Part shown: piece after piece, positions 26,286 to 64,000 of the stretch
Layout: every line of letters begins with the position of its first letter
How positions within the stretch are numbered: position 1 is the stretch's first letter
Assembly (NCBI RefSeq): GCF_030253575.1
Contig: NC_080560.1
Span: 43,663,001 to 43,727,000, forward strand
Length of the DNA stretch: 64,000 bases
From: Rhododendron vialii
Taxonomy: Eukaryota > Streptophyta > Magnoliopsida > Ericales > Ericaceae
Reading direction: 5' to 3'
The notes under the pieces: generated by a model
The model's database searches: none
What the model was told of the DNA's origin: nothing
The model's input: only the letters and a program-made list of their open reading frames with translations
Made by a program: the position numbers and the translations under genes

Positions 26286-26287
<2 letters not shown>

Positions 26288-26334
<47 letters not shown>

Positions 26335-26352
26335 GGGAGAAATTAGGGTTCC

Positions 26353-26391: not shown

Positions 26392-26393
<2 letters not shown>

Positions 26394-28388: not shown

Positions 28389-28562
28389 TCTACATAATAA
28401 GGGAGAACGATTTTTTAATCTTATCTCTCTATAGATCCTAACCATTGATTTGTTTCATAAATCCTACAGCTCTTCTTTTTTCTCTCAAACAATATTAATT
28501 ATACAATTACCACTAATTAAATCTCACATTGTGCGGTACCTGAAGGCACGGGCAAACCCTAG
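28389..28562 (+). mobile_element. Short non-autonomous Helitron candidate
   Basis: Begins TCTACATAATAAGGGAGA after an A and ends with a small hairpin (GTACC-TGAA-GGCAC), GGGCAAACC and CTAG at 28559-28562. Start, end and hairpin fit a Helitron, but the following base is C instead of T. Body is AT-rich and non-coding. Confidence 0.5.
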
Positions 28563-36194: not shown

Positions 36195-36210
36195 TCCCGA
36201 TAAGTATATG

Positions 36211-39658: not shown

Positions 39659-39660
39659 AT

Positions 39661-39678
39661 TGGCGACTCTGCTGGGGA
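39661..39678 (+). other. Primer binding site, probably tRNA-Arg type
   Basis: TGGCGACTCTGCTGGGGA begins two bases after the LTR. It complements a tRNA 3' end ending in TCGCCA; by recall this fits plant tRNA-Arg best with small mismatches, as reported for other Tat-lineage elements. Confidence 0.6.
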
Positions 39679-39788
39679 ACTGCAGAAAACAACTTTCGGG
39701 GTGTTCTTTGTGTTCTTCGCATTCATAATCCGTTGAGGGCCTTCGTGCATCGCAGATCCTGTTTGTTCTTCACATTTGCACGGAACAA

Positions 39789-42700: not shown

Positions 42701-45700
42701 GGCCGCGCATACCGAAGCTGTGATAGCAGAGGTGAATCAACTATTGGAAGCTGGCGTCATTCGGGAAGTACTATACCCCACCTGGCTTGCCAACCCAGTG
42801 GTAGTCCCGAAGAAAAATGGGAAGCTACGGGTCTGTGTCGATTACACGAACCTCAATGACGCCTGCCCTATGGATCGATTTCCACTTCCTCGGATCGAGC
42901 AGATGGTAGATGCAACGGCAGGATGCGAGCGCCTAAGCTTCATGGACGCTTAGGATCCGGAAGATCAAGAAAAAACGGCTTTCATCTCGCCTCGGGGAAC
43001 CTTCTGTTACAAGGTTGTCCCGTTCGGCTTGAAGAATGCAGGCGCCACTTTTCAACGCTCCATCACGAAGATGTTTCCTGGCATGCTCGGCGTAAAAGTA
43101 GAAGCTTATATTGACGATTTGGTTTGCAGAAGCATATTCGCTCGGGACCACCTTCGGGATCTGGGAGAGGTCTTTGCTGTTCTAAAACATAGGAAGCTAC
43201 GTCTCAATGCCGAGAAGTGTGCGTTTGGCGTTAGCTCGGGGAAATTCCTAGGATACATGGTGAGTCGTCGAGGAATCGAAGCTGATCCTACCCAGATTTT
43301 GGCTGTGCAGCGGCTACGAGCTCCAACGACGATTAAAGAGGTACAGCGGCTCACGGGGATGGTTGCTCCCTTGAACCGTTTCATTCGACGTTCGAGCGAT
43401 CTCTGCCGCCCGTTCTTCCGAGCAATCACAACAAGCCGACGCAGATTTGTATGGACAGAGGAGTGCGAGCAGGCTCTGCAATCTTTAAAGCAATACCTAT
43501 CTCACGCTCCTTTGCTCGTCAAGCCCCTGCCCGATGAAGATCTCTATCTTTACCTTGCCGTCTCTGACCATGCAACGAGCGCGGTTCTTGTTCGGAGAGA
43601 AGGGATGGACCATCAACCAATCTTCTACTCCAGTAAAACGATGACGGATTCTCAGACGAGGTATCTGCCTATGGAAAAGTTAGCATTAGCTCTCGTTTCT
43701 GCTAAAACGAGCCTCTTGCCCTACTTTCAATCCCATAGGATTGTGGTCCTCACTGAGTTTCCTCTCAGAGCTGTTCTTCGGAAAACGGACACGTCGAGTC
43801 GAATCCTGAAGTTCTCTCAAGACTTGGCCAACTTCGACATCCAATTCGAGCCTCGGACAGCTATCAAAGGGCAAGTCCTGGCCGACTTCTTTGCCGAACT
43901 CACTCCCGGCTTACAAGACGAGGCCAATGCCCTGGCAATTGCTGCTGAGGACTCTCGGATTCAAGAAGAAGAGGTTTTGGAAGGGCCGTCCAGCTGTCAT
44001 GCCGAACCACTCCGAGCTCGGTATTCCCTCGGGCGCAAGAAACCCAAAAGACAATGGAAGCTCTTCTCCGGCGATGCTTGGCGACTGACCGTCGATGGAG
44101 CTTCTAACGTTCATGGAGCTGGTGCCGGCATCGTCCTTGTTTCACCCAGCGGGACTGTTCATGAAAGCGTGGTTTCAATTGGGTACACAGCGACGAACAA
44201 CGATGCGGAATATGAGGCTCTAATTGCAGGCCTCCAACTTGCTCTTCGGCTGGATGCAGATTCGGATCATGTCTTTTGTGATTCTCAGCTCATTGTGGGG
44301 CATTTAAACGACGATTATCAAGCCAAAGATCGACGTATGAATGCTTACGTAAGCCACGTGTTGTCTTTGTTCGGCAAATTTGGACGCGTCGAAGTGGAGT
44401 GGATCGCTCGGGAGCATAACGCCCACGCTGACGCCCTTGCAGGTCTTGCTTCAGTTTACAAGACCTCGGGTAGTCGCACCATCACCTTCGACGAGGTCCC
44501 CAAGCCGAGCTTCGAAAAGCCGTCTGAACAGGTTATGGCCATCACCCTCGGCTCAAGCCAGCTGGATTCTGTGGTTGCTTACCTGAAGAATCAAGTGCTA
44601 CCGACGAACAAGCGCGAGGCGTACAAAATCCGTTGCTGAGCTGCCAATTTTTTCTTGGGACCGAATGACAATCTCTACCGACGGACTTTTACTGGCCCCG
44701 ATCTGCATGTCGTCCACGACGACCTCGTGCCAGCCGTTCTGGAGGAACTTCATTCGGGTAGCTGTGGGGCTCACTCAGGAGGGCGGTCCCTTGCACAGCG
44801 TGCCCTAACGCAAGGCTATTGGTGGCCGAAGATGGTCAAGCAATCCGAAGACTACGTGAAGCTCTGTGTTCGGTGTCAGAAGCATGCATCTCTCATCCAC
44901 CAGCCTGCGTTTCCCCTTAAAATGATCACCAGTCCATGGCCGTTCGCGGTTTGGGCTTTTGACATAGTTGGCAAGATGCCAAAGGCGCCCGGAGGATTTG
45001 AGTACATGCTCACTGCCACAGATTTGTTCACCAAGTGGGTCGAAGCCTCCCCGTTGATCAAGACCACCGCCGGGGATGTGGAACGCTTTATCTGGAAGCA
45101 CATTATCTCCAGGTTCGGCGTGCCGTACGCCATACTATCTGATAACGGTTCCCAATTTGTCGCCTCCGCTCTCAAAGCTTTCTATGCGAAGCGCCATATT
45201 ACCATCCAAAATTCCTCGGTGGCATATCCTCAGGGTAATGGACAAGCCGAAGCATCAAACAAGACAATCACTCGGGGGCTGAAGCGCCGTCTGGATCGGA
45301 AGCTCGGCAAATGGGTGGAAGAGCTTCCACATGTCCTTTGGGCCTATCGAACAACGCCTCGGCGGTCCACCGGCCGTACTCCGTTCGCTATGGCCTACGG
45401 TATGGAGGCTGTCCTCCCTTTATCTACTATGATCCCTACAGTTCGGACGGAGAATTTTAACCCTGTCGACAACAGTGCTCTAGTGGGTTCCGAGTTAGAT
45501 TTTGCCGAAGAACTGCGTGACAATGCTAACCTTCGGCACGCCGCGTACCAGCAAGAAGTTGCAAGGGGCTACAACCGCAATGTTCGTGCTCGACCATTCA
45601 ACGTCGGGGACTTAGTCCTTCGGATGGTTACCGAAGCGACAAAGTTGACCAAGCTAAAAGACCCCTATGAAGGGCCTTACCGAGTGGTTGAGAAGATCGG

Positions 45701-45788
45701 GCATGGAGTCTACAAGCTTGCTGAGATGGATGGCACGCCAATCGCTAATCCATGGAATGCCCAAAAGCTTAGGAAATTCCATGGCTAG
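39789..45788 (+). pseudogene. gag-pol polyprotein of the Tat element, two in-frame stops
   Basis: One frame of 2000 codons from the ATG at 39789. Arg/Pro-rich N-terminus; gag core about 340-500; CX2HX4HX4C knuckle from residue 610 (CTYHKERGHYTTQC); protease with DQGSSAD near 744; RT from about 1000 with WLANPVVVPKKNG and, beyond the break, YIDDL at 1107; RNase H near 1255; a second RNase H near 1430 (TVDGASNVHGAGAGIVL); integrase with a zinc-binding HHCC region and D1725, D1785, E1821 (35 residues between the last two). Stop 1 (TAG, 42951-42953) falls directly after the FMDA of RT motif A, where about eight conserved codons are missing; the frame then resumes. Stop 2 (TGA, 44637-44639) lies between the second RNase H and integrase and looks like a CGA to TGA change. 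This copy cannot make a full polyprotein without help. Confidence 0.95.
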
Positions 45789-46445
45789 TGTTGGCATCTT
45801 TTGTATTACATTTTTGCTCGGCAAATGCGCCTTTGAGCGTTATGCACTTAATATAAATTCGTCCAGTATTCTGCTTTATTTTTACACAAGGGGTATTTTA
45901 TCTAGCTCCAGTAACATCTCTTGTTCGGGTGAAATCCTCTAAGCCCCTGATGATGTGTTTGTTCGGGTGAAATCCTCTAAGCCCCTGATGATGTGTTTGT
46001 TCGGGTGAACTTCTCTAAGCCCCTGATAATTTGTTTGTTCGGGCGAAATTCTCGAAACCCATGATCACTTTTTCGGCTCAGTTTTCCCATCCTACTGCCT
46101 TATTCTATTCCTACGGTAATACAATAGGGCAGGGGGCTACTATATGGGTAAACCTGAGTTCATCTCTCAGTGACTTCCAAATCACATAAACAGTCCTTCC
46201 GAATGAAAAGACTTAAAAATTTCTGAAAAAATTTCTGAGATGTGATGTATATACCGAACAGAAAGACTTGGCAAATATTTATATACTTGGAAACAACATC
46301 CATACCGAACGAACAGACGATTGTCTTTTAAAAAAAAAAGAGAAAAATCTCCATGTTTTTGTTACATCCGATGGTCGGTGCCGACCAATGTCAAAACTAT
46401 GCAAAAACAAAACAAAATACAAAGACAGACTAAACAAGAACAAAT
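45789..46445 (+). other. 3' untranslated variable region of the retrotransposon
   Basis: Non-coding stretch between the gag-pol stop and the end of the antisense gene; contains the 38-bp tandem array. Confidence 0.7.
45922..46073 (+). repeat. 38-bp tandem repeat, four copies
   Basis: Units start at 45922, 45960, 45998 and 46036, each beginning TGTTCGGG(T/C)GAA. The first two are almost identical; the last two are diverged. Tandem repeats in this position are known from Tat-lineage elements and have been proposed as seeds of satellite DNA. Confidence 0.95.
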
Positions 46446-49015
46446 CTAATCCGTTGGAGCGTCGGATGGGGCTGGTGGAGTCGGAGCGTCGGTTTGGGCC
46501 TGTAGGATTGGAGCTTCGGCCGGGGCTGGTAGGGTGGTCGACTCGATAGCGTCGGCTATTGGCTCCTCCGCTATAACTTCGGCAGGGGCGAAGGGTGGTA
46601 TTTCCACCAGACTCCTCCTTTCGTCGTCAGCTTCAGCGCCTGCATCGTCGAGACCCATGTTGTAGCCGAGCATAAAGCTCTCTTTGTGCTGGGCCTCCTT
46701 GATCTCGTCTTGCACTTCAAGGACTTGATCGGTCACGTCCTCTTCGGCCTGGGCGTATCCTTTCTCGTACTGCCCCTGCACCTCTTTCTCCATCTCTTTC
46801 CTCATCTCTTCCCTCCCCAAGGCTCTCCCTTCGGCCAACCCCTCATCTTTTCCTTCGGCTCTGGTCTGCTCGGTAGACTCTTGCAACCCCTTGATAAGGT
46901 CATTTTGGTTGGCGACCTGAACCTCGAGGCTTTGCCTCACGAGCTCGGATTGCTCCAAGCCCTTCTTGTACTCCTCGGCCAGGGCCTTGTTGTATTCCAC
47001 CGACTGCTTTTGCAGTTTTGACTTCTTGTCATATTCGGTGAGATGCAGCTGGGCACTCATTATGGACTGGGTAGCCTGTAAACAAAGCAAAATGAAAGTC
47101 ATTCCGACGGAGTAAGGCATTTGTAAAAAAAAAAAAAAAAAAAAACAAACAAACAAAACGAATGTGCAAGTGTAAAACCATTTACTTACCCTTCCTGCGT
47201 GATAGTAGTATTCACTCAGGGCTGCTTTCAGGGAGGGGGGATTCTGTACATCCCTCGGCAAAGCTAGCCCCGAATGAAGGGTGAAAGCCAGGGAGGGATC
47301 CTCCCTCAAGCTATCCGATTTAAGGACCTGTTTCTTGCCAGGTGTGATGAAGCTTGGCACCCATGGGGTGTCAAGATCGAAGGCAGTCACCCTCCCTTCT
47401 CCTTCTGCGGCGGCCTCTTTCGATTGCTCCACCTCTTGGCCCTTTCCCTTAGCGGCCGCCCTCACCTTCTTGCTCGCAGGTGGTTCCTTCGGGGAAGGAG
47501 GAGCGCTCAGTGGTCGCTTTTTAGAGGGGGGAGGAGGTGGGACTTTCTTGCTCGGAACCGAGCCCGAAGCGGCTGCACTCGAAGCGGCTGTACCCCCAGC
47601 CTTCTGCAGTCGAGCCTTCTCCCTCTCTTTTTCCTCCAGCTTCTTCTGGAGAACCTCCTTGATGTTTCTTGGAGGCATACCTTCTTGTTGTTCAGGGAAA
47701 AGCTCTTCCTCGGTCGGAAGTCGGATTGACCCTCGGAGGGGTTTGTCGAAGCTCGGTCGGAGCTCTTGTGGGGTGTCCTCGGACTGCTCAGGCTCGTCAG
47801 TTACCTTTCGTCGGATCCGACCACCGTAGGTAGCTGTATATTTGAGGATGGTTGGGGCGTCTCTTTCCTCCGCTGGGATAGTGAGCAGGGAGTCGGCAAG
47901 ACCGCAACCTTTGGCGGCCCTTAATAGTACCTTGTTGATCTTGGTGGTATCTGCCGAAGACAAGCGTGAAATCGTTAGTTGAATTTTTACAGCTGAAATC
48001 AGAGCAACAGAAATAAATATTTGAAGTAACGACAAGTGTTCTTACTCGGCGTGCCTCTGCGTGTGGCTATCTCAAACTGACCGTATTCGTGTTCGGGGAA
48101 TTGGAAATTTCCTCGAACTTCGACGTAGTCAGAGGCCCATTTCTCCGAGTCATACATGCCCTCGGGAATGATCTTTTGCATCTTCCTCCGGGAGCAGAGG
48201 TAGTATCGAGAGTACCGAACGTTTCTCGACATCATATAATTTTCAAAAAAATGAAAGGCTTCTAGGCGGAACATCTTCACCTCAGCAAGGGCGATTACCG
48301 AGTGAATGATGCGGTAGGAATTGACGCTCAGCTGGCACGGAGTGAGATTGAAGCGGTGAAGTATCTCTCTCAAAACTCTGTGCATCGGGAACCGAAGGCC
48401 CCCTTTTGTGATTGCCATCAAGGGGACAGTGACGTGTTCGTCACCATATTTTATTCGGTTCCCTCGGACTGGTGTAATGATAACATCGTTAGGGATGTCG
48501 TAGACGGCTCGGAAGGTGTCCAGGCTTTTTTTGTCTTGGAAGCATTCCAAGTAAGGGCAGGGGTCCTTTCCCGTTCGGTCAGGGATCACATCGGGGTCCA
48601 TCGGAACGATCTTCCTCTTCACCTTCGGCGGATGTGACGAGGATTCCCCAGCAAATCCGGCCCCTTCATTCGCTCGGCTTGGCGAGATAAGCGGAGTCCC
48701 TGGTCTCGACTCGGCTTCGTCAGCTCCTTCGGCCTCCTCTTCCTCTTCTGCTTCGTCATGAGGACTTTCGGACGAAGATTCGCCTATGTCTATAATATCG
48801 GGGTCCGGCCCGATTGTTCGGAGAGGAGCCACCATGGCGGGGTAGTCGACTCCCTCTACACCCTCGGGGATCCTTCCGCTTGATCCCGTTCGGTAATTTC
48901 GGGCGAAATCTCTTATAGCTTCGGATAACCCCGGATCGGATCTACCAAAACCCGAATCTTCGGAATCCATCGACCGATAAGATTCGCCCGAAGAAGGTGA
49001 CTTTGCAGACTCCAT
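46446..49015 (-). CDS. Antisense gene of the retrotransposon, three exons, putative gypsy-type transposon protein
   Basis: Exons 48046-49015, 47190-47950 and 46446-47075 join through two GT-AG introns (95 and 114 bp; phases 1 and 0) into 786 residues without a stop. The N-terminal third is acidic and serine-rich; next comes a globular region (VPLMAITKGGLRFPMHRVLREILHRF and following) like the Pfam family for putative gypsy-type transposon proteins (Transposase_28), by memory; then a Pro/Lys-rich part with basic nuclear-signal-like stretches and a long coiled coil in exon 3 (KKSKLQKQSVEYNKALAEEY). Function unknown. The ATG at 49013-49015 is preceded by TTTCTAGGT, so a 5'UTR intron acceptor may lie there; an upstream ATG at 49061-49063 is the alternative. 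It runs opposite to gag-pol, so its introns stay in the element's genomic RNA. Confidence 0.8.
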
Positions 49016-49954
49016 ACCTAGAAACAGATAAGTGCATGGGATAAGACCGTTAGCGATTTGCATGGCCAAGAATCTAAGTGCCTACGTTCGTTGTTTTGTG
49101 TCGTTAGGAGAGACATCACCTTTGTTCGGTTGTTTCCCGAGCGATTCCCCTCGAAAGAGATTCCGAAGGAAGGGCTCATACCGATCAGGAAAACGGTGGG
49201 GGACCCTACGCGTTCCCAATGGGGAAACAGAGATTGAGAAGCTTCACAGGGGTTGTAAAGCTTCTTAAAGACTGCCCCTTTGTAAAAACCTCACGCTTGA
49301 AGATGCCCTCGTGTTCGGAAGAACACAATTTCAAGGTGTTCATACGCTCGGAAGAACACATGAACACCTGGGTTTCAGGCGGTTCTCAGTCAAGACCAAA
49401 GGGAAAAAATCGACCAAAAAGGGGGGAAAACACTCGAAAAAACGCTCAAAATGCATCGAGAAATGGAGGGGCTCAAGAAATACCTGAGAAATCAAGAGAA
49501 ATCTGTGATCAGAAGCCTTCAAATATGCAGATTTCTGGCGATTTCAGTCTGGAATGGTGCTTGAACAGTGAGACGATCGAGAGTCAGAGAGAGAGTAACC
49601 TTCTCTCTCCTTCCCTCTTCCCTTTTATACTGGGTGTAGCATTCGAAGCGGTCTCTCACCCTGACCGTCGGATTTGGGCGGGAGACTGATGTGCCGCTCG
49701 ATGAAGGACGCGTGGCAGATATGAAGCGTGCCGTACCAGCACCCAATGAAATCGTGACACCTGGCATCGATTCAAATCGACGGTTACAGGAGCATTTAAT
49801 GAAAGGCTGCGCGCGCGTCTCGAAGCGTTTCAAATAATTTCTGTCCGTTCAACTCTGACGGTTCGTCTGGTCGATCGCTCTTCGGACTGATGGTTCTTCA
49901 GTTTTACGTCTTCGTTCGGCCAGGTTCTTATTCAACTCCTCTTTCATTTCCGAG
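49016..49954. other. Region between antisense gene and 3' LTR
   Basis: Probably the promoter and leader of the antisense gene. A phrase CGGAAGAACACA occurs twice (49315-49360), and AGAGAGAG-type tracts lie near 49590. No coding sequence that I can support. Confidence 0.45.
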
Positions 49955-49977
49955 CAAGAAAAGAAGGAGTTGAGGGG
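49955..49977 (+). other. Polypurine tract
   Basis: A purine-rich run (AAGAAAAGAAGGAG, then TT, then GAGGGG) ending four bases before the 3' LTR; expected plus-strand primer. Confidence 0.6.
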
Positions 49978-49981
49978 CTAT

Positions 49982-50743
49982 TGTAGGGGGCCGAAATATC
50001 CGAAGGTTCACCAGGTCCAAAAGGGGCGATGAGGGTTCACACGTTGTTTGACTCATCATCCAAGCTATCACGGTTCGCCTCCAAATAAGTCTGGACTTCG
50101 GTTGGGCCGAAAGATAGACAGAACCACGAGTGCTTCACCGAACAATTATAAGCAACATCCGAACATACGACACATGAGTTCGCTCGGGGCTTTATCAAGC
50201 GCACGGATACGAACTTCCGTTTGTTCGGCCAGGGTGTGCCTCGGCCGGGATGTCATACGCTAGGATAATTCGTATGCTGGACGCGGGTCCCGCCGAACCT
50301 GGACGATTGTGGAACCTTCCATAAATATCTACTGATATTTAGGCTGTCCTCTCTTACATTCGAAGTGACATCTCTGAACGATATGACCCTCCTGACATCA
50401 GCCCATGTGGCTCTGAAAGACTAGAGAAGTGGTGTTCATTAACTGGCCCTGCTAGAAAGGCGCCAACCGAGCAGAACGTGACACGTGGAAAGTATGGCCA
50501 ACTTACTCAGCACTTCATCTCTTTGCCTATAAATAGAGAAGCATGGCCACTGAGTCAGGGGGGGAGAATTGAGTCGAAGGGAGCATTTTCTCTTTCCTGC
50601 AGACTGTTCTTACTAAACTTCTTTCTTTCCATTTACTGACTTAATCATCGGAGCTTCTTCCCGGAGGAGCAACCCCCTCCGGTTCTACAGGTACATCAAG
50701 ACCGATCGCACCAGAAGGAGCACGAAGAAATCACGCCCCCACA
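49982..50743 (+). repeat. 3' LTR, 762 bp
   Basis: Gapless match to the 5' LTR with four substitutions (50168, 50633, 50705, 50707). Followed by the target duplication GTTTC. Confidence 0.98.
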
Positions 50744-51519
50744 GTTTCTGAATCTAACGGTATGCTTCCATTGTAATCTGAAGTAAAACTACTTCTCGAA
50801 ATTAGAGTAAATTAACCCCTAGTAAGAGATAAACATCAACGGCACCGCGACCCCAAATACCTTTGGGACCACATTAGCTTTGTCTCATATGTTCACATCA
50901 AGATCAAAAGATTAGTTGAGGCGCCCGTAACCTGGTCCCGGAATAAACTGAAAAATGGGTCACACGGCACAATTTTGGGTTCAAATTGATAGAATTCACT
51001 GATAAGAATTGTCACAGGTTTGAAACCTAAAAGCATGTGCTCTACGGTTCCAATGAACTCTGCCATAGCGAAGCTGTGGCTGTTCAAATCACGACCAAAG
51101 TCTATTCCAAACAAACAATGAAAGGTCGAGGCAAATGAAATTTCAAAACAAGGAAACCAAAACATGCATTCGCATGCTTAAGCAATCGAGTTAAAACTAC
51201 CAGCATCATATTATATGATCAAGTCCTGAGCAATACCATAACAAAACATGAAGCTTAAAACCGTAACAAAGTATCCAGCTTCTGAAACTATAACTATTAG
51301 CGAGTAATGAACTCCAATTCTGGTGAGGGAAATAACTACAAGCTTCGAGATAGCAAAAACTTGACCCAGCAAAGCAGAAAAACCTGTTACAAAAAACATG
51401 AGAAGATCAATTTGCTAAATATTCCTATCACAGAATAAGAGCTTTAGAGTATATTGGAAAAAAGGTCATTGTCAAGAAAAAGTTGAGAAAACAATCAATT
51501 TGACCTGCCCAAAACAGTT
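50744..51519. other. 3' flank of hAT-derived unit 1
   Basis: Homologous to about 56190-56299 and 60760-61332 of the other units. Nothing coding; likely 3' UTR near 51519. Confidence 0.55.
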
Positions 51520-54478
51520 TCAGTGCTTCAAGTCCCAGGTTCGAGTGCACATCAAGGCATCCCTCAAGGCTGGTCCGGAGGCCATGAGTCGTGTTTCAAC
51601 CACTCTTGGTTCTGTGCTAAAAGCCTCACCTGAAGTAGGAACAGACATTGGAATAGCCAGAAAATCACGGGCCATCTTAGACAGGATTGGATACTTGGGG
51701 CTTTCAGCTCTCCACCATTTCAACACATTGAAATCCTGGGTCCAAGGCAAGACAGGTTCCTCCAGATACCGGTCCAAATCAGACTTTGGTGGCTTATTAT
51801 TGGATTCAATGAACTGCTTATACTCTTGCAAACAGTTCGAATTTTTGGAACCTCCTCTCTCCGTGCTTCTTGTTAACTCCTCTTCTGAATCAGAAGAAGT
51901 TGAATCACTCACAGATTTCTCTTTCTCAAGATCTTGGTCCACATAATCACGGTAAATGCCAAAAACGGCATCCAAAACAAGAGCACTTTGCGAGTTCCCA
52001 TCACTTACTTCACGTTTAGAGGAGAGATAGTCTATGTATTTCATCTTATGGCGGGGATCCATTACAGAAGCGATTGACAACACGAAAAACATATCTTCCA
52101 AGTACTTATCAAGTCTCCGTAGCATTTTCTTGGCTACTTTGCTTGTGAAACTATCTGAGCTGATTGTCTCCTTGAATAGAATTGCCCTAAGCTCCTCAAG
52201 ATTATGAAGGAAGATGTTAGCAGTGGGATGTTTTGTTTCAAATATTGTCTTTGCCACCGCCTCGGCACTTTCAACCAGCATACAAATGCATTTGACTTTC
52301 TCCCATTCATCAGCAGAGGGTACATCATAAAAATCTTGCAAATTTTCCGAAGAAAATTCACCCATGGCATCCAACTCCAAAGCCTCCTTTAGCTTGAATG
52401 CTGTGAGGTACCATACAGGAGCAAATTTCCAGGAAATCATTAAACTAACTTTATCGATGATGTCAGATATCTCGTTATATGCAGCGGCTGCCATTCGATT
52501 AAACATCTTGGCACAACACTTCACACAAAATAGTTTTCCATCAAGTCGGAGCTTCTTCTTTTGTTGAACAACATCTTTAATTTCCTCAACCATTTCGTCG
52601 TAAACATTGCTCTCTGCCAATGTAAGACCGGATATCTTGCTCTCAATGTCCCAATCTTTCACAGTTTTTAATGTGGCAGAATGAAGGATTTCATCGTCGT
52701 CACCCAAAATACACCGAAAACCAAGAACCCACCTTTTTAGTTTCCATCTATCATCAATGAAATGCGCTGCTAAGCACATGAATGCATCATCAAATCCACT
52801 AGGCCTGTAGTATCTCAATACCTCAACCGAGAGACTAATTTGCCCATCCATGGTTTTTAAGATATGCTTAACCCTCAGCTTATCTTTCTCATAAACTTGC
52901 AAGCAATTGCGTTTGATAGTACGAGAATCAAGCGGAAACGATGGATTAAGATCTTTCACAAGACGAACAATATCAGGCAATCCTGAGGAGCATATGTACT
53001 TAGCTAATTCCTGTTGCCCTTTCTCATAAGCGATAGCTCCATCGCCATCACCTGTAGCCCTGATTCCATTTTCTGCCTCATCATCACCATCACAATAACA
53101 GGCACAATAGTTATCAGTCCTTTCGACATCCTTGGCATCACCACTTTCATTATCCTGCTTAATACCTAATCAAGGGACGAGCATGATAAGATAGTTATTA
53201 AAAGCAAACACATAAATAAGGTTAAATCAATTCAAGGGGTAGGTTTTTGTCTAGTATTTCAATGTACGAATCTATAAAAATTTTAAAAGTAACTTCCTTG
53301 CATTCTGAAAAGCGTCTGAATTTTTTATATTTCAGGCTCAGTATGTTAGTAGGCCTTCAAATAGTTCCAGTGAGATATTTTCCACTATAGTCGGTGCTTG
53401 GTTGCACCATATTACTATAAACTGATCTTCCGTGGAAAACCATCGGTACCTTATAGTTACCTTCTGAAACTATATTACCTGTCACCAGCACGTATAGCCA
53501 TATCTAGGGCCAACGACCATTTACCACTTTCAGAGTTATATTTTTGGCATTTTGAACCCCTACGCTAACTTACTCTCACCATCCTGATCAGTCATTGCTA
53601 TTGTGTTCAAATTACTCATACAACTTCGGCTTTTCAGATTTCTTCCTTGCCAATAAGTCTATGTTTTGATTTGGTAACTTGACTATAATTCTGTTACTTG
53701 TTTTAAAAACTGTTTCTATATTTATTTTAGTAACTTTGACCATAAGCGTAGCCTTATTCTTGCAATTTTTCATATCTTCCAAGTACAATCAATTTTCAGA
53801 ACCTAAAATGAGATAACAGTTACGACTTAGAACGAGTACTTCAGGATATGTAACTCAATTTTTCGTATCACTTCGACCATAAAGTTTCCACAACACAAAA
53901 AATAAGTTGAAAATCACTCTGTTGATGACAAATTTCTTCGGTCCAACCAAAAAGAACTTTAGTTTCATAGACTATTGATAATTTCTGTTGGGCAAGTGAA
54001 GCCTGATTCGAATCAGGCTTGCTGACTATTTGGGGTTCGACCTGGTATGAGCCGCAGGTGTACTAGATAGTGTTATACGGTAATTGGAGATGTAAACCCT
54101 AGATTACAAATACTTGTTATACGCAGCACCCATGGTATCTTGTACTCTCTTCATTACTTCATCCAATACACAGTGAAAACTGGTGTGAGCCGTGTATGTA
54201 CCAAACTACACAGTTAAGGAACCACAAAAAAATTTCCGCATCTAGCGTTCTTGTTTTCTTTTCTTAATTGTTCTTCACGTGTTGTATGTTTGTTGGTTTT
54301 ACCAATTTCTCTACACTTTCACGGTCATGGAACTAAAATTACATTTGTTGAAAATGTAAACCAGAAGTTTTGACAAGAAAGTACAGTTACCATCGCCATC
54401 AGCTCCCTTGTTTTCAGTACCAAATTCTTTCTCACTCTTCGGCGTCAAAGCATTATCATCAACTTTACGTTTTGGCAT
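51520..54478 (-). CDS. hAT-transposase-derived protein without BED finger, unit 1
   Basis: Exon 1 is 54391-54478 and exon 2 is 51520-53165, phase 1, giving 577 residues; a 5'UTR intron (54484-54717) is likely. Layout: nuclear-signal-like MPKRKV, an acidic linker (about 30-90), the hAT core (YMCLAAHFID-type phrase as FMCLAAHFIDDRWKL; FAPVWYL; VMDPRHKMKY), and the C-terminal hAT dimerisation domain (DLDRYLEEPVLPW, FNVLKWWR, YPILSKMARDFLAIP). It resembles RICESLEEPER/DAYSLEEPER-type domesticated transposases but begins where their core begins, so the BED zinc finger is absent. The expected acidic residue of motif LTxDxW is replaced (SVEVLRY), the second TxDNA-type Asp is lost (LAESNV) and the CCAH histidine is Lys (CCAKMFN). 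Transposition activity is therefore unlikely; a regulatory role is inference. Confidence 0.85.
53992..54087. mobile_element. 96-bp insertion in unit 1 intron with a 22-bp perfect palindrome
   Basis: Absent from unit 2, where TTCTATTGG runs directly into the sequence after it. Flanked by TTGG on both sides (53988-53991 and 54084-54087). Includes the palindrome of 22 bases at 53999-54020 (arm AAGCCTGATTC) and a GGGGTTCGACC phrase like a pol III B box. Too small to classify. Confidence 0.65.
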
Positions 54479-54748
54479 CGAATCTAAGAGAAAAAAAAAC
54501 GAAAATCTTTAGCACGTAGATGCACTCAGATCAAGATGCGTACAATAAAGCAGTAACCAAATCGAAAGCGTCGTTTGTGAAATCGCTGTTCAATTATCAA
54601 AGCTGAAAAAAATCTTAAATAATATTCGGGAAAAGTAGAACCCAAGCAAAATCTAGTATATAAACAAGAACTAATTAACAAAACGGATGACATAGAAGTG
54701 ATCTGTAATGGCTTAACCTTTTGTGCGGCTTCTCGTTCGTGAAGTTTG

Positions 54749-54750
<2 letters not shown>

Positions 54751-54797
<47 letters not shown>
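54751..54797. repeat. (GA)n microsatellite at the 5' end of unit 1
   Basis: About 23 GA units just upstream of the probable leader exon (54718 and beyond). The same tract stands at the same place in unit 2. Confidence 0.95.
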
Positions 54798-54800
<3 letters not shown>

Positions 54801-56299
54801 GGGGTATTCGAGTGTGCGGGGAAATGAAATTGTAGCGAACATAACACGAAAGGATTAGAGCGAGTACTCGGCATGTATTTGGCGGGAAGTTTCCGAATGC
54901 ATCAGATCAGTACACGTGGCTGATGATGTACGACGTTGCGGCCACTCTGTTCGACCTCGCGGCCACACAGGCGACCCTTGCAGCCACCCAATCTACAGTC
55001 CACGCAGTTTCGGAAATAAAGAGTTGTTTTACCAAAAGTCCAAGGGGTCATGTGCCCACACAGGATCTGATCCCGTTTGATTTGGAATTTTGGATATTAA
55101 TTTGTAGGTAATGAGTGTAAAAAAAAATAGAATAATAATTGAAAATAGAGATAATAATTGAAGAGAAATATAGAAAAAATGAGAGTAGATAAATAGGATA
55201 ATGATTAGAATTCAAAATCCAAAACTCAAAACGAACGGAGACTAGATTTGCCCGAGAGTCGTTTGATTTAAATGGTTTAATTACAATTTTAAACTCATTT
55301 TATGTTTTTGCACTAGCGCAACAAACTTGATAGAAAAAAATAGGAGTGTCAAATTTGTACGATGAAATTAAGATGAAACGGTTAATTTGATTGTACAAAC
55401 ATTTCGAATTTTAGATTACGATAAGATGTTGCATGTGGTATTCGCATCATTCACCAATTTATGTGAAGGACAAGTCTACAAGTAAAAAATTACGGAATGA
55501 TCGTTTTATTCGTTTCCAAACCCATTCCAATAAACAACACTCTACCTTAGCAAGTTTAGGGAAGAAAAAATCGCATAAAATTCATGTATATAAAGGGCTA
55601 AGTAACAGAGTGTGCTTGCGTGAGCAAGGTGCTTTCATGCAAAGAACTAAAATTCGCAAGAGCGAGAATTGAGAGCTCAATTGCAGGACACTACTGAAGG
55701 ATTATGTGATTGAGATAGAAAGTGCACTTATCAGTCTTTTTAGCAAAAATTTAACACAAGATTACAGCATTGCACTTTTTTTTTCACCAACTACATAAAC
55801 AAGTCCCACATTTATTAAAGAAGGATTAGTCTCGGTTAAGACATTTATTTGATCGGGGGATCGCAAACCTCTTTCTTTTTTCTTTCATGTGAAGAACCAA
55901 AAAAGCATTAGACAAGAAAATCGCAGCACCAGCTACTTACATATGAAGTTGACAAAACAAGAGCAAGGTATATAGTAATGGGAAAAAAAGTCCCTCTCCA
56001 TGAGACAGACCTGTGATAACATTTTTCCAGTTTTGAAACTATTGGTACGCTTTGGAAAGTAAAGTAAAACCAACCTTCCAACAATAGCAACAATAGTAAC
56101 AGTATCCATACAGTTGGCAGTGAATGAGGGTAGGAGTCCACAAAATAGTGGCCCTAGCCCCATATAACTTAAAAATCAAATTATGTGCTCAAGAACTAAA
56201 GAATGGACCACATGGCACAATTTTGGATTCAAGTCGTTACAGTCGATGATAGGAATTGCCACAAGTATAAAACTTAAACAACTCGGCTCCAAAACAGTT
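54798..56299. other. Spacer between unit 1 and unit 2
   Basis: The first 220 bases hold the probable unit 1 promoter, with repeated GCGGCCAC phrases (54935-54990). From about 55400 the sequence is the 3' flank of unit 2, homologous to 38385 onward. No gene. Confidence 0.55.
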
Positions 56300-59166
56300 T
56301 CAGTGCTTCAAGTCCCAGGTCTGAGTGCACATCAAGGCATCCCTCAAGGCTGGTCCGGAGGCCATGAGTCGTGTTTCAACCGCTCTTGGTTCTGTGCTAA
56401 AAGCCTCACCTGAAGTAGGAACAGACATTGGAATAGCCAGAAAATCACGGGCCATCTTAGACAGGATTGGATACTTGGGGCTTTCAGCTCTCCACCATTT
56501 CAACACATTGAAATCCTGGGTCCAAGGCAAGACCGGTTCCTCCAGATACTGGTCCAAATCAGACTTTGGTGGCATATTATTGGATTCAATGAACTGCTTA
56601 TATTCTTGCAAACAGTTTGAATTTTTGGAACCTCCCCTCTCCATGCTTCTGGTTAACTCCTCTTCTGAATCAGAAGAAGTTGAATCACTCACAGATTTCT
56701 CTTTCTCAAGATCTTGGTCCACATAATCACTGTAAATGCCATTAACGGCATCCAAAACAAGAGCATTTTGCGAGTTCCCATCACTTAGCGTTTGGAGGAG
56801 AGATAGTCTATGTATCTCATCTTCTGACGAGGATCCATTACAGAAGCGATTGACAACACGAAAAACATGTCTTCCAAGTACTTATCAAGTATCCATAGCA
56901 TTTTCTTGGTTTCTTTGCTTGTGAAACTATCTGAACTGATCGTCTCCTTGAATAGAATTGCCCTAAGCTCTTCAAGATTATGAAGGAAGATGTTAGCAGT
57001 GGGATATTTTGTTTCAAATATTGACTTTGCCATCACCTCGGCACTTTCAACCAGCTTACAAATACATTTGACTTTCTCCCATTCATCAGCAGATGGTACA
57101 TCGAAGATTTTCACAGAAGAAAATTCACCCATGGCATCCAACTCCAAAGCCTGCTTTAGCTTGCAAGCTGTGAGGTACCATACGGGAGCAAATTTCCAGG
57201 AAATCAGTTCACTAACTTTATCGATAATGTCAGATATCTCCTTATATGCAGCGTCCGCCATTTGATTAAACATCTCGGCACAACACTTCACACAAAATAG
57301 TTTTCCATCAAGTCAGAGCTTCTTCTTTTGTTGAACAACGTCTTTAATTTCCTCGACCATTTCGTCGTAAACATTGCTCTCTGCCAATTTTAGGACCGGA
57401 TATCTTGCTCTCAATGTCCCAATCTTTCACAGTTTTTAATGTGGCAGTAGGAAGGATTTCATCATCGTCACCCGAAGTACACCGAAAACCAAGAACCCAC
57501 CTTTTTAGTTTCCACCTATCATCAATGAAATGCGCTGCTAAGCACATGAATACATCATCGAATTCCCAACGCCTGTAGTATCTCAATACTTCAACCAAGA
57601 GACTAATTTGCCCATCCATGGTTTTTAAGATATGCTTAACCCTCAGCTTATCTTTCTCATAAACTTGCAAGCAATTGCGTTTGATAGTACCAGAATCAAG
57701 CAGAAACGATGGATTAAGATCTTTCACAAGACGAACAATATCAGGCAATCCTGAGTAGCATATGTACTTAGCTAATTCCTGTTGCCCTTTCTCGTAGTCG
57801 ATAACTCCATCGCCATCACCTGTAGCCCTGATTCCATTTTCTGCCTCACCATCACCATCATTATCACCATCACAGTCATCATCATCACTATCACAATAAC
57901 AGGCACAATAGTTATCAATCCTTTTGACATCCTTGGCATCACCACTTTCATTGTCCTGCTTAATACCTAATCAAGGGAAGAGCTTGATAAGATAGTTATT
58001 TAGAAGCAAACACATATATAAGGTTAAATCAATTCAAGGGGTAGGGTTTTGTCTAGCATTTCAATGTACGAATCCATAAAAAATTTTAACTCCCTTGCAT
58101 TCTGAAAAGCATCCGAACTTTTTGTGTTTCAGGCTCAGTATGTTAAACCTTCAAATAGTTCCGGTGAGATATTTTCCGCTATAGTCGGTGCTTGGTTGCA
58201 CCATATTACTATAAACTGATCTCTCGTGGAAAAACGTTGGTACCTTATCATTACCTTCTGAAACTATATTACCTGTCACCAGCACCTATAGCCATATCTA
58301 GTGCTGACGACAATTTACCACTTTCAAAGTTATATTTTTGGCATTTTGAACCCTACGCTAACTTATTCTCAGCAGCCTGATCATTCATTGCTATTGTGTT
58401 CAAATTACTCATACAACTTTGGCTTGCCGATAAGTCTATTTTTTTTATTTTGGTAACTTGACTATAATTCTGTTACTTGTTTTAAAAACAGTTTCTATAT
58501 TTATTTTAGCAACTTTGACTATAAGTGTAGCCTTGTTCTTGTAATTTTTCATATCTTCCAACTACAATCAATTTTCAGAACCTAAAATGAGATAACAGTT
58601 ACAACTTAGAATGAGTACTTCAGGATATGTAACTCAATTTTTTGTATCACTTTGATCATAAATTTTCCGCAACACAAAAAGTAAGTTGAAAACCACTCTA
58701 TCAAGTATCAATGGCAAGTATCTTTGGTCCAACCAAACGGAACCTTAGTTACAGAGACTATTGATAATTTCTATTGGTGATGTAAACCCTAGATGACAAA
58801 TACTTGTTATACACAGCACCCGGGGTATCTTGTACTCTCTTCATAACTTCATTAAAATATAGAGTGAAAACTGGTGCCGTGTATGTACTCAAACTACACA
58901 GTTAAGGAACCACGTAAAAATCTTCGCGTCTTGCGTTCTTGTTTTCTTTTCTTGATTGTTCTTCGCATATTATATGTTTGTTGGTTTGACCGATTTCTCA
59001 ACAATTTCAGGGTCATGGAACTAAAATTACACTTGTTGAAAATGTAAACCAGAGGTTTTGAGAATAAAGTACATTCACCATCGCCATCAGCTCCATTGTT
59101 TCCAGTACCAAATTCTTTCTCACTCTTCGGCGTCAAAGCATTATCATCAACTTTACGTTTTGGCAT
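56300..59166 (-). pseudogene. hAT-transposase-derived gene, unit 2, disrupted
   Basis: Same structure as unit 1: exon 1 59079-59166 (intact, MPKRKVDDNALTPKSEKEFG), intron 57967-59078, exon 2 56300-57966, and a matching 5'UTR intron (59172-59429). Exon 2 has three lesions against units 1 and 3: a one-base gain near 57386-57394, a CGA to TGA stop at 57313-57315, and a four-base loss near 56788. Each breaks the frame in the core, so no full protein results. The Asp-rich linker is longer than in unit 1 through extra GAT repeats. The C-terminal dimerisation domain is still very like that of unit 1, so the damage is recent or conversion has kept the ends alike. Confidence 0.9.
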
Positions 59167-59459
59167 CGAATCTAGGAAAAAAAACGAAAACATTTAGCAC
59201 GTAGATGCACTCAGATCGAGATGCGTACAACTAAAGCAGTAACTAAATCGAAAGCATCGTTTGTGAAATCGCTGTTCAATGATCAAAGCTGAAAAAATCT
59301 GAAACAATATTCGGGAAAAGTATGATCAAAAAAATAAAATAAAATAAAAATTCGGGAAAAGTAGGACCCTTGCAAAATCTAGAAACTAAACAAGACAGAT
59401 GACATAAAAGTGATCTATAAAGGCTTGACCTGGTGTGCGACTTCTCGTTCTTAACGTTT

Positions 59460-59462
<3 letters not shown>

Positions 59463-59499
<37 letters not shown>
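59463..59499. repeat. (GA)n microsatellite at the 5' end of unit 2
   Basis: About 18 GA units, the counterpart of 54751-54797. Confidence 0.95.
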
Positions 59500-59502
<3 letters not shown>

Positions 59503-61332
59503 GGGCTATTCGGGTGTGCGGGGAAATGGAATTGTAGCGAACACGACAAAGGATTAGGGTATTCGCCATTTTTTTGGCGGGAAGTTTCTGAATGCATCGG
59601 ATCAGTACACGTGGCTGAGAATGTACGACGTTGCGGCCACTCTGTTCGACCTTGCGACCACATACATAGTCACACCTTGCGGCCATATAGACGACCCTTG
59701 CAAGTTGCAGCCACCCAATCTACGCGGCTCAAAAGTCGGGTCATGTGCCCACCTGAAATTGTCCCCTAATAGATTCGCCCGAGAGTTGTCTCATTTACAT
59801 GTTTTAATTACGATTTTAAACTCATTTTATGTTTGATTTTGTGCAAATAAGTATATACAGATGAAATAACTACCACATCTTTACAATCAAATAATTCTAT
59901 TTTAGGACAACAAACTTAATAATAATAATAATAATAAAAGGAGTATCAATTTGTACAATAAAATTAAGATGAAACAGTTAATTTGATTGTACGTACATTT
60001 TGAATTTTAGATTATTTCTTTTTTGATCCGGAATTTTAGATTACTACAAGATGTTACAAGTGGTATTAGCATCACTCACCAACTTATGTGGACAAGTCTA
60101 CTAGTAAAAAATTACGGAATGATCTTTTTATTCCTTTCAAAACCCATTCTTATAAACAACACTCTACCTTAAGCAAATTAAAGAGAAAATTGCATAAATT
60201 CATGTATAGAGAGCTAAGTAACAGAGATTGCGTGAGTTTGCGTGCGTGAGCAAAGTGCTTTCATTGTAAAGTACTGAAATTCGGAAGAACGAGGATTGAG
60301 AGCAAGAGTGAAGGGCACTACTAAAAGATTCTGTGACTGAGATAAAAACTCTTGGTTAAGACATTTGATTGGGGAATCGCAAACCTCTTTCTTTTTCTCT
60401 CATGCGAAGAACCAAAAAAGCATTAGACAAGAAAAACACAGCTCCAGCTACTTACATATGAAGTTGACAAAACAAGGGCAAGGTATATATTGATGGGAAA
60501 AACAGTCCCTCTCCATGAGACAGACCTGTGATAACATTTTTCCAGTTTTGAATCTATAGGTACGCTTTGGAAAGTAAAGTAAAACCAACCTTCCAACAAT
60601 AGCAAGTTAGCAACAATAGTAGTAACAGTATCCATACAATCGGCAGTGAATGAGGGTAGGAGTCCACAAAATAGTGGCCCTAGCCCCATATAACTTAAAA
60701 ATCAAGGAACTTGCCTTCAAATCAAAGCTGAAAGCCAACAAAAAGAGCTGACCTAGAGACCCGATTCAATTTATGTGCTCATTAACTGAAGAATGGATCG
60801 CATGGCACAATTTTGGATTCAAGTCATCACAGTTAACTGATAGGAATTGTCTCAAGTATAAAACTTAAACGACTCGGCTCCAAACTTCGAATAAGCTCTA
60901 CTAATAGACCCAAGTCTAATTCCAACAACTAATGAAAGGTCAACCCAAATGACATTTCAAAACAATTAAACCAAAACATGCGTTCGCACCCTCAAGCAAT
61001 TGAGTTAAACTAACAGCATCATATTGTATATGATCAAGCCCGGAGCAATACCACAACTAAATATAATGCCCAAAATTATAACATACTATGCAGCTTCTGA
61101 AACTATAACAATAACTACTTATGGTCTCCATTTCCGATAGGGAAAGAACTATAAGCCTCGCGATAGCAAAACTTGACCCAGCAAGGCAGAAAAACCTGTT
61201 TCAAACAACATGAGAAGACCAATTGGCTAAATATTCCTATCACAGAATAAGGGCTTTAGAGTATATTGGAAGAAAGGTCTTGGCAAGAAATTGCTTAAAG
61301 ACAACAATCAATTAGACCTACCGGAAACAGTT
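59500..61332. other. Spacer between unit 2 and unit 3
   Basis: The first 260 bases match the unit 1 promoter (phrase ATGTACGACGTTGCGGCCAC at 59621). A short AAT triplet run is at 59920-59936. From about 60060 it is unit 3's 3' flank. No gene. Confidence 0.55.
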
Positions 61333-62990
61333 TCAGTCCTCTAAGTCCCATGTTCGAGTGCACATCAAGGCATTCCTCAAGGCTGGTCCAGAGGCCATGA
61401 TCCGTGTTTCAACCTCTCTTGGTGTTGTGCTAAAAGCCTCATCTGAAGTAGCAACAGACATTGGAATAGCCAGAAAATCACGGGCCATCTTAGACAGGAT
61501 TGGATACTTGGGGCTTTCAGCTCTCCACCATTTCAACACATTGAAATCCTGGGTCCAAGACAAGACCGGTTCCTCCAGATACCGGTCCAAATCCGACTTT
61601 GGTGGCTTATTATTGGATTCTGTGAACTGGTTATACTCTTCCAACCAGTTCGAATTTTTGGAACCTCCTCTCTCCGTGCTTCTTGTTAACTCCTCTTCCG
61701 AATCAGATGAAGTTGAATCACTCACAGATTTCTCTTTCTCAAAATCTTGATTCACATAATCAATGTAAAGGCTACTAATGGCATCCAAAACAAGCGCACT
61801 TCGCGATTTCCCATCATGTACTTCACGTTTGGAGGAGAGATAGTCTATGTATCTCATCTTATGACGGGGATCCATTACAGAAGCGATTGACAACACGAAA
61901 AACATGTCTTCCAAGTACTTATCAAGTGTCTGTAGCATTTTCTTGGCCACCTTGCTTGTGAAACTATCTGAGCTTATAGATTCCTGGAATAAAATTGCCC
62001 GAAGCTCTTCGAGATTAAAAAGAAAGATGTTAGCAGTGGGATATTTGGTATCAAATATTGACCTTGCTATTGCTTCTGCACTTTCAACCAGCTTGCAAAT
62101 GCATTTGACTTTCTCCCATTCATCAGCAGATGGTACATCATAAAAATCTGACACCTTTTCCGGAGAAAATTCGTCCATGGCATTCAACTCCAAAGCCTCC
62201 TTCAGCTTGCAAGCTTTGAGGTACCATACAGGTGCAAATTTCCAGGAAATCAATAAACTAACTTTATTGATGATGTCGGTTATCTCCTTATATGCATCCT
62301 TCGCCATTAGATTAAACATCTCAGCACAACACTTCACACAAAATAGTTTTCCATCAAGTTGGAGCTTCTTCTTTTGTTGAACACTCTCTTTAATTTCCTC
62401 AACCATTTCGTCATACAAATGGCTCTCTGCCAAAGTAAGACTGGATATCTTGCTCTCAATGTCCCAGTCTTTCACAGTTTCTAATGTGGCAGAATGAAGG
62501 ATTCCACCCTTCTTAAACCAAAGACGCCGAAAACCAATAACCCACTTCTTTAATTTCCACCTGTCATCGATAAAATGTGCTGCTAAGCACATGAAGACAC
62601 TGTCTGATCCACTACACGTGTAGTATCTCAATACATCAACTGAGAGACTAATTTGTCCATCCATGTTTCGCAAGATATGTTTAACCCTCAGCTTATCTTT
62701 CTCATAAATTTGCAAGCAATCGCCTCTGATAGAAGGAAGATCAAGCGGAAACGATGGACAGAGATTTTTCACTAGAGAAACAATATCTGGCAATCCTGTG
62801 GAGCAAATGTACTTTGTGAGTTCCCGTTGCCCTTTCTTGTAGTCGATAACTACATTTTCTGTTCCATCATCACCATCATATTGACAATCATCATCATCAT
62901 CATTATCATCACCTTCACAATAACTGTTGCAATGCTTATCCGTCCTTTCGACATCCTTGGCATCATCAGCTTCATTATTCTCCTTTATAC
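61333..62990 (-). CDS. hAT-transposase-derived protein, unit 3, exon 2 (gene runs off the window)
   Basis: Exon 2 is open from the acceptor (TAG before GTATAAAGG at 62990) to the stop, about 552 codons, with no lesions. Order and motifs match unit 1: acidic Asp-rich linker, hAT core (SVDVLRY, CCAEMFN), VMDPRHKMRY, and C-terminal dimerisation domain ending RTWDLED. As in unit 1 the expected catalytic acid of the first motif has moved or changed context, and no BED finger precedes the core. Exon 1, expected about 1.1 kb to the right with the PKRKV start, is not in the window, and an LTR-like insertion at 63757 now lies in the intron. It is the most diverged of the three units. Confidence 0.8.
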
Positions 62991-63756
62991 CTATTCAAGG
63001 AATGAACATGGTAAGATAGTTATTTAGAAACAAACACAAAAGTGAGGTTAAACTAATCCAAAGGGTAGGCTTTTGTCTAGTTCTTCATGTACCAATGCAT
63101 AAGTTTTTTATAAAATCATCACTTCCTTGCTTTCTGAAAAGCATCTGAACTTTTTTTATTTTAGGCTCAGTGTTTTTAGCCTTAAAATAGTTCTGGTAAC
63201 ATATTTTCCACTATTTCCGGTTCTTGGTTTCTCTATATTTCTGTAAAATAATTTTCTGTGTAAAAACGTTGGTAACCTAACACCTGTCACCACTAACTAT
63301 AGCCATATCTCAGCCCGGCAACAATTTACGACTTTCAGATTCATATATTCGGCCTATTTCAACACCTACACTAAGCTATTCTCACGAATCTCACCATCCT
63401 GGCCGTTCATTGCTATTCTGTTTAAATTATCACACAACTTCTTATTTTTTGATTTTTTTCCTCGTGGATTAGTCTATTACTTGTTCGCAAAACCGTTTCT
63501 TTGAAGTGCTCATCATCTTCTTCGTTTCCTTAAGAGTTCTTGCAACTATCCATATCTTCCAACTACAATCAATTTTAAATACCCTATAATGAGACAATAG
63601 TCACAACATAGAATCAGTACTTCAGGATATGTAACTTGTTTTCTGTAACACTTCGATAATAGAAAAAGTTAACAAGAAAAACCGTTGAAAATTATTATAT
63701 CCATGGAAAATATTTAAGGTCCAACCAATCAGAACATTAGCTATAGACACTCGTAT
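62991..63756 (-). other. Intron 1 of unit 3
   Basis: Homologous, with many changes, to introns 53166-54390 and 57967-59078 (phrase TCAGGATATGTAACT kept near 63622). Non-coding. Confidence 0.6.
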
Positions 63757-64000
63757 TGATGGGGAATTTCCTCGATTTCACCCACAAAGGAAGCGCAACA
63801 CAAAATAAATAAACACAAAAGAGACACAATATTACGTGGTTTGGTCTCAATGACTCCACAGGGGGGGAGAGATTCCACTATATGAAAAATAAGATATTAC
63901 AATGTGAGATGAAAACCCCTCCTCGAGCTCCTAACACTATGGCTCACACAATGTTTTTCACTCACCCCCACATCTCTATTTTTCCCTCACATCTATTCTC
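63757..64000. mobile_element. Possible LTR, cut by the window end
   Basis: Homology to the unit 1 and 2 introns stops at 63756. The new sequence starts TGATGGGGAATTTCC and has phrases (ACGTGGTTTGG, GACTCCACAGG, GATATTACAATGTGAG) typical of plant Copia LTRs read in antisense. Its far end is outside the window, so this is a guess from pattern. Confidence 0.4.

What the first reader, a model, noticed from the sequence alone, without database searches (positions are those of the whole stretch)
51520..62990. Tandem triplication of a hAT-derived gene that lost its BED finger and catalytic residues
Three head-to-tail minus-strand units share exon layout, a PKRKV start, a phase-1 intron and, in units 1 and 2, a 5'UTR intron and a GA tract. 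The core keeps fold and dimerisation motifs, but the residues expected at the catalytic Asp positions and the CCxH histidine are changed. Units 1 and 3 stay open over 550 codons while unit 2 is dead. A gene with its own introns and leader that keeps its frame without catalytic residues looks like domestication, possibly as a dimerising regulator without its own DNA-binding finger.
Basis: partly seen in the sequence, partly recalled or inferred. Interest (0 to 1): 0.75.

Follow-up and report, generated by a model that had tools for sequence, protein, structure and literature searches.

The report
Fingerless, catalytically dead hAT-derived plant genes
A Rhododendron gene cluster with two intact copies and one broken copy belongs to an apparently old plant family built from a jumping-gene enzyme that has lost its DNA-gripping finger and most of its cutting residues but keeps the part used for pairing, so it probably now serves the plant as a pairing or regulatory protein.

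Summary
Three head-to-tail minus-strand hAT-derived genes lie at 50.9-64.0 kb of a Rhododendron contig; unit 3 exon 2 is identical to an R. vialii protein. Corrections: exon 1 of unit 3 is outside the window; the first catalytic Asp is kept in unit 3 (Glu in unit 1). The losses are not tied to the triplication: they mark one 49-row clade (100/100 in a 43-row subset) drawn from about ten eudicot orders. Pfam finds BED in 0 of 49 (25 of 39 other hAT proteins); the second catalytic Asp is kept in 0 of 49, the CxxH His in 0 of 49. The hATC pairing domain is the best-conserved part, as in other hATs too. Units 1 and 3 differ with dN/dS 0.50 (below 1, 2dlnL 15.5) and without frame-breaking indels. 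The units are segmental tandem duplications without convincing hAT ends. This is best read as an old exapted family outside the SLEEPER definition, which requires a BED finger. Action as a pairing partner is inferred; expression and partners are untested.

The parts
54391..54478 (-). Unit 1 exon 1 (coding): MPKRKVDDNALTPKSEKEFGTENKGADGD + first base of the next codon (phase-1 intron)
   Evidence: Sequence; joined with exon 2 it gives a 577-aa open protein
53166..54390 (-). Unit 1 CDS intron (GT...AG, phase 1)
   Evidence: Sequence; junction inferred from the protein models P0001/P0002, no RNA seen
51520..53165 (-). Unit 1 exon 2, open to the stop: hAT-like RNase H domain (PF14372) and hATC dimerisation domain (PF05699)
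59079..59166 (-). Unit 2 exon 1 (MPKRKV start)
   Evidence: tblastn of P0001
56300..57966 (-). Unit 2 exon 2, broken copy (1-nt insertion, in-frame stop, 4-nt deletion; ORF pieces 57344-57970, 56785-57312, 56300-56881)
61333..62990 (-). Unit 3 exon 2, open; identical to residues 30-581 of the R. vialii protein P0001 'RICESLEEPER 1-like'; exon 1 lies beyond the window end
54479..54900 (-). Unit 1 leader: CT tract (54752-54797) and putative 5'UTR intron ending just before the ATG
   Evidence: Sequence; tract; repeat families D11/D16
59167..59600 (-). Unit 2 leader with CT tract (59464-59499) and putative 5'UTR intron
   Evidence: Sequence; tract; repeat families D11/D16
50943..64000 (-). Tandem segmental duplication: units of about 4.7-5.0 kb that include gene, introns and flanks
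   Evidence: Self-comparison; similarity to the unit flanks resumes at 38387-38884 on the far side of an inserted LTR retrotransposon

Best explanation
The array belongs to a family of host genes exapted from a hAT transposase and shared by many core eudicots. SHOWN by sequence and model: (1) the proteins form one clade; (2) they lack a detectable BED finger, the second catalytic Asp, the CxxH His, the Arg of the TRW motif and Glu at the catalytic Glu column, so they should not be able to grip transposon ends through a finger or cut DNA; (3) they keep a predicted Hermes-like fold, with the hATC dimerisation domain as the most conserved part; (4) in place of the finger there is a short, usually acidic N-terminus, predicted disordered in the R. 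vialii protein, and in the Ericaceae copies beginning with a basic MPKRK/MSKRK-type motif; (5) in this Rhododendron the genes lie in a tandem cluster made by segmental duplication, with two open copies and one recently dead. INFERRED: the protein is nuclear and works by pairing through hATC, with itself or with BED-bearing hAT-derived proteins, as a co-regulator or as a subunit that dilutes finger-bearing partners, not as a stand-alone DNA-binding factor.
Against: hATC is also the best-conserved region among the other hATs (0.49 against 0.34-0.38), so its conservation does not by itself single out pairing as the kept function. Constraint is only moderate (dN/dS about 0.5) and the unit 1 branch alone (0.445) is not significantly below 1 (2dlnL 3.1). 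14 of 39 other hAT rows show no BED by Pfam either, some being fragments. Unit 1 has no near-identical protein in the database (best hit 80%), so it may not be annotated as coding. No transcript, localisation or interaction data; pairing was shown for DAYSLEEPER, not here. N-terminal acidity varies (D+E 0.08-0.43 in the 40 of 49 rows with at least 25 residues) and a basic start is absent in many rows. dN/dS could be computed only inside this window, for want of other plant DNA.
Confidence: 0.55

Rival explanations
1. Decaying transposon remnants: ordinary hAT copies that lost their ends and are dying, with chance open frames in two units.
For: Unit 2 is dead; dN/dS is only moderately below 1 and the unit 1 branch is not significant alone; unit 1 carries Glu at the first catalytic position; on the short unit 1 branch alone neutral survival of the frame is not rare (0.09 at K 0.035).
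Against: A 49-row clade sharing the same losses in about ten orders; simulated neutral drift at K 0.116 per site (half of the u1-u3 dS) gives a mean of 7 stops and P(no stop) 0.0010 and 0 of 2000; no frame-breaking gaps between the open exons; U1 and P0001 depart from only 5 and 4 of 71 family-conserved columns, 3 of them shared.
Confidence: 0.12
2. A dominant-negative brake on hAT transposons: the finger-less dead protein joins the oligomers of active hAT transposases through hATC and poisons them, so the host keeps it as genome defence.
For: Hermes gathers several BED domains in one octamer to find its left end (PMC10368747, abstract and passages); the family's hATC is its region closest to other hATs (0.40); finger and catalysis are lost; tandem birth and death would suit an arms race.
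Against: No interaction data; hATC is the best-conserved region of hATs in general; the swapped helix that builds the Hermes octamer was not examined here.
Confidence: 0.15
3. A stand-alone nucleic-acid or metal-binding protein: the RNase H-like core, with Asp 1, the invariant Cys of CxxH and the new acidic residue at the His position, forms a changed site.
For: D1 is D in 44 and E in 5 of 49, Cys in 49 of 49, acidic residue at the His column in 39 of 49 and just after the Glu column in 39 of 49.
Against: D1 is Glu in unit 1; the second Asp column is free (10 residue types); the core is less conserved than hATC.
Confidence: 0.1

Closest known systems
SLEEPER genes (DAYSLEEPER, RICESLEEPER, VINESLEEPER; PMC3499209)
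   Same: hAT-derived plant host genes, hATC domain, residues needed for transposition lost, no hAT ends, mostly an intron before the start codon
   Different: SLEEPERs all have a BED finger, those tabulated are 675-799 aa, and those of Arabidopsis, grapevine and rice have no CDS intron. This clade has no detected BED, 42 of 49 rows are 495-600 aa, and units 1 and 2 have a phase-1 CDS intron. NCBI's name 'RICESLEEPER 1-like' for P0001 is misleading
C7ORF29 of mammals (PMC3606216, passages)
   Same: A hAT/ZBED-derived gene that has lost its BED domains but stays open
   Different: Heavily truncated in catalytic and helical domains and known from mammals; here the predicted whole fold and hATC are kept and the family spans many plant orders
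Hermes transposase (PDB 2bw3, 4d1q, 6dww, 8edg)
   Different: Active, BED-bearing enzyme with transposon ends

Membership tests
hAT transposase superfamily (protein domains and fold) | hATC dimerisation domain and hAT-like RNase H domain | tested here: met
Active hAT transposon | Complete DDE triad and CxxH motif | tested here: not met
   D2 0 of 49, His 0 of 49, Glu 0 of 49 at the aligned columns; D1 kept in 44 of 49. Column names recalled; a one-residue slip at the Glu is not excluded
Active hAT transposon | Terminal inverted repeats with 8-bp target-site duplication | tested here: not met
   11-bp ends with up to 2 mismatches and 8-bp duplications with up to 1: unit 1 1 hit (shuffled mean 0.15, max 1), unit 2 1 (0.55, max 2), units 1+2 0, unit 3 0 with its right flank cut. 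The unit 1 hit has its left end inside the inserted LTR. Flank beyond the insert: 2 hits (mean 0.70, max 3 of 40), one in flank homology; between LTR and stop 0
SLEEPER gene family | C2H2 BED zinc finger | tested here: not met
   Definition in PMC3499209 abstract; none found in the units, 0 of 49 in the clade
SLEEPER gene family | SLEEPER motifs 1 and 3 | not tested
   Motif logos are in a figure that is not held; motif 1 overlaps the BED finger
SLEEPER gene family | No intron in the CDS (stated for Arabidopsis, grapevine and rice only) | tested here: not met
   Phase-1 CDS intron in units 1 and 2 and its acceptor in unit 3, from sequence and protein models, no RNA
SLEEPER gene family | Grouping with DAYSLEEPER in a tree | not tested
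   No authentic DAYSLEEPER or RICESLEEPER sequence was obtained; rows so named by sources are unverified
Domesticated (exapted) transposase | Purifying selection and loss of mobility | tested here: met
   u1-u3 dN/dS 0.50, 2dlnL 15.5; no convincing ends; one clade with shared losses. Unit 1 branch alone not significant
Domesticated (exapted) transposase | Expression and a host function | not testable with these tools
   No RNA or phenotype data at hand

The most novel reading that the evidence does not exclude
A previously unnamed family of finger-less, catalytically dead hAT proteins, present since before the asterid-rosid split and kept in self-renewing tandem clusters, that serves core eudicots as a trans-acting brake on hAT transposons or on BED-bearing SLEEPER-type regulators by forming mixed dimers through hATC.
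Probability: 0.17. Interest if true: 0.8.

Novelty: new variant of a known kind. Interest (0 to 1): 0.55.

Why it matters
SLEEPER genes, the named plant hAT domestications met here, keep the DNA-binding finger, and DAYSLEEPER is thought to act as a DNA-binding protein. In this family the finger and most of the active site are gone while the pairing domain is kept, in many orders of core eudicots. That isolates one question: what is a transposase fold good for when it can neither grip ends through a finger nor cut? It also shows that a database name such as 'zinc finger BED domain-containing protein RICESLEEPER 1-like' can hide a separate family without that domain.

Tried and rejected

Papers: PMC3499209 (abstract, part 1 of 3 of Results, passages), PMC4029315 (passages), PMC5715367 (passages), PMC3606216 (passages), PMC10368747 (passages, abstract among them), PMC6027215 (passages); all others in search listings only. 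Searches that could have shown a description of such a BED-less plant family; none of the listings names one, but the library lacks most subscription papers.

Full report
What was checked. The window is Rhododendron: unit 3 exon 2 is identical to residues 30-581 of an R. vialii protein, P0001 (581 aa, named 'zinc finger BED domain-containing protein RICESLEEPER 1-like'), and that region is 97% identical to a protein of R. molle. Self-comparison shows three head-to-tail copies of a 4.7-5.0 kb segment. The longest aligned blocks are 94% (u1/u2, exon 2), 85% (u1/u3, with intron and 3' flank) and 81% (u2/u3, with intron); shorter blocks in leader and flanks are 76-91%. This is tandem segmental duplication, not transposition. 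A search for 11-bp inverted ends with 8-bp duplications found 1, 1, 0 and 0 pairs for unit 1, unit 2, units 1+2 and unit 3, against shuffled means of 0.15-0.55. The unit 1 pair has its left end inside an LTR that was inserted later. With that insert set aside there were 2 pairs in the flank beyond it (mean 0.70, maximum 3 of 40 shuffles) and 0 between LTR and stop codon.

Gene structure. Units 1 and 2 start MPKRKV and have a phase-1 GT...AG intron after 29 codons plus one base; the acceptor is present in unit 3, but its exon 1 lies beyond base 64000. The R. vialii, R. molle, Vaccinium and Actinidia proteins begin with a similar peptide ending GADADG, where the junction would lie. Unit 1 gives an open 577-aa protein. 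Unit 2 has a 1-nt insertion, a CGA to TGA stop and a 4-nt deletion. The leader CT tract and a possible 5'UTR intron are visible in units 1 and 2.

Selection. Codon maximum likelihood (own script): u1-u2 dS 0.092, dN/dS 0.48; u1-u3 dS 0.232, dN/dS 0.50; u2-u3 dS 0.243, dN/dS 0.56; all differ from 1 (2dlnL 9.0, 15.5, 12.0). On the three-branch tree the unit 3 branch (long, includes the stem) is below 1 (2dlnL 8.9), unit 2 is (4.4), unit 1 alone is not at 5% (3.1). One ratio for all branches fits as well as three (lnL -3428.4 and -3428.2), so unit 2 seems to have been constrained until recently. The open exons differ by one 12-nt in-frame gap in the pairwise alignment, or two in-frame gaps of 33 and 21 nt in the three-way one, while 768 aligned bases of u1/u3 intron have 16 gap events, 11 not multiples of three. 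Neutral simulation at K 0.116 per site gives about 7 stops per unit and P(no stop) 0.0010 for unit 1 and 0 of 2000 for unit 3; at 0.035, the unit 1 branch alone, it is 0.09, so that branch by itself is weak evidence. Of 71 family-conserved columns U1 departs at 5 and P0001 at 4, 3 of them shared.

Family. Three protein searches gave 111 proteins. In a tree of 88 rows, 49 form one clade (SH-aLRT 100); in a careful tree of 63 rows (43 of the 49, 20 of the 39 others) the 43 do (100/100). Named members of the clade come from Ericales (Rhododendron, Vaccinium, Actinidia, Camellia), Cornales (Cornus, Davidia), Escalloniales (Escallonia), Lamiales (Olea, Fraxinus), Gentianales (Coffea), Apiales (Heracleum, Apium), Saxifragales (Liquidambar), Rosales (Prunus, Malus, Pyrus, Fragaria), Fagales (Castanea, Quercus) and Caryophyllales (Silene; a Chenopodium fusion, P0075, was left out of the trees). 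Orders are recalled; species names are from the calls. Because subclade B joins Actinidia with Liquidambar and Rosaceae (86/96) while subclade A is asterid only (100/100), their split probably precedes the asterid-rosid split; this is an inference from a tree with weak nodes.

What was lost and kept. Pfam at E<=1 finds BED in 0 of 49 clade rows and in 25 of 39 other hAT proteins; 14 of the 39 thus show none either. At aligned columns the clade has: first catalytic Asp D 44, E 5; second Asp 0 D of 49 (28 of 39 in the others); Cys of CxxH 49 of 49; His 0 of 49 with 26 D and 13 E (24 H of 39); Arg of the TRW motif 0 of 49 (27 of 39), its Trp 47 of 49; catalytic Glu column 0 E of 49 (22 of 39), with D or E in the next column in 39 of 49. 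That last shift is without a gap, but a one-residue alignment slip cannot be excluded without a structure; a significant profile match of the hATC part to Hermes also pairs a non-Glu residue with the Glu of SAASERTFS. The names of these positions are recalled. The stretch that carries LDxxTRWNST in other hATs is shorter: 82 residues in P0001 against 110 in P0037 over the same alignment range.

Clusters. The R. williamsianum model P0009 (partial) contains, in order, a piece nearest to subclade B (Actinidia P0016), a unit 3-like piece and a unit 1-like piece, which predicts a subclade B gene just upstream of unit 3, outside the window. Two Camellia fascicularis models two locus numbers apart (P0030, P0032) are nearest to B and A; Actinidia rufa P0029 (B) and P0004 (A) carry tags of the same chromosome number and contig length. 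Heracleum, Liquidambar and a 214-kb JGI contig also hold several members. This suggests long-standing local clusters rather than dispersed transposons, but rests on names and contig lengths.

How it may work. In Hermes the dimers form through the dimerisation domain and an octamer gathers BED domains to find the left end (PMC10368747, passages). DAYSLEEPER pairs through hAT blocks D-F; a version without residues 1-142 was not nuclear, and versions deleted at either end did not complement (PMC4029315, passages). A protein with the pairing domain but neither finger nor complete active site is therefore expected to act through partners. The MPKRK start of the Ericaceae members could serve nuclear import (judged from memory, untested). 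I give exaptation about 0.85, pairing through hATC about 0.65, and pairing as the main mode of action about 0.45; 0.55 is for the statement as worded, with its inferred step marked.

Compared with what is known. SLEEPER genes are the nearest named plant family, but a BED finger is part of their description ('All SLEEPERs contain', abstract), so this clade is not filed there; it resembles them in being catalytically impaired and in the leader intron. A mammalian BED-less hAT derivative, C7ORF29, is a partial precedent. Searches of the held library listed no paper on a BED-less plant family; that library lacks most subscription papers. I rate it a new variant of a known kind.

Noticed in passing
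window 38897-50743: Young Ty3-type LTR retrotransposon in the 3' flank of unit 1: 762-bp LTRs 99.5% identical, TG...CA ends, 5-bp target-site duplication GTTTC, gag, RT, RNase H and integrase on the + strand; similarity to the unit flanks resumes at 38387-38884.
   Followed up: partly
window 46446-49081: Two long minus-strand ORFs (531 and 360 codons) inside the same retrotransposon, antisense to its gag-pol, without a Pfam match at E<=0.001; antisense ORFs are known in some Tat-type elements (recalled).
   Followed up: partly
window 7507-16717: Tandem array of four similar minus-strand ORFs (starting 7507, 10291, 13065, 16142) that look like invertase/pectin methylesterase inhibitors; Pfam PMEI hit tested on the first only.
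   Followed up: partly
window 17929-36230: Ordinary genes: a pyridine nucleotide-disulphide oxidoreductase (17929-19179), a PP2C phosphatase (23590-24663) and a galectin-domain protein (35346-36230).
   Followed up: no
window units 1-3, exon 2 alignment columns 1453-1560: A 107-bp run identical in all three units within the hATC region, although exon 2 differs by 5.3% (u1/u2) and 12.9% (u1/u3) overall; gene conversion or strong constraint.
   Followed up: partly
P0001 residues 148, 250 and 253 (family alignment): The first catalytic Asp (44 of 49 D, 5 E) and the Cys of CxxH (49 of 49) are nearly fixed and the His is replaced by an acidic residue in 39 of 49 rows, while the second Asp column is free: a possible changed binding site.
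   Followed up: no
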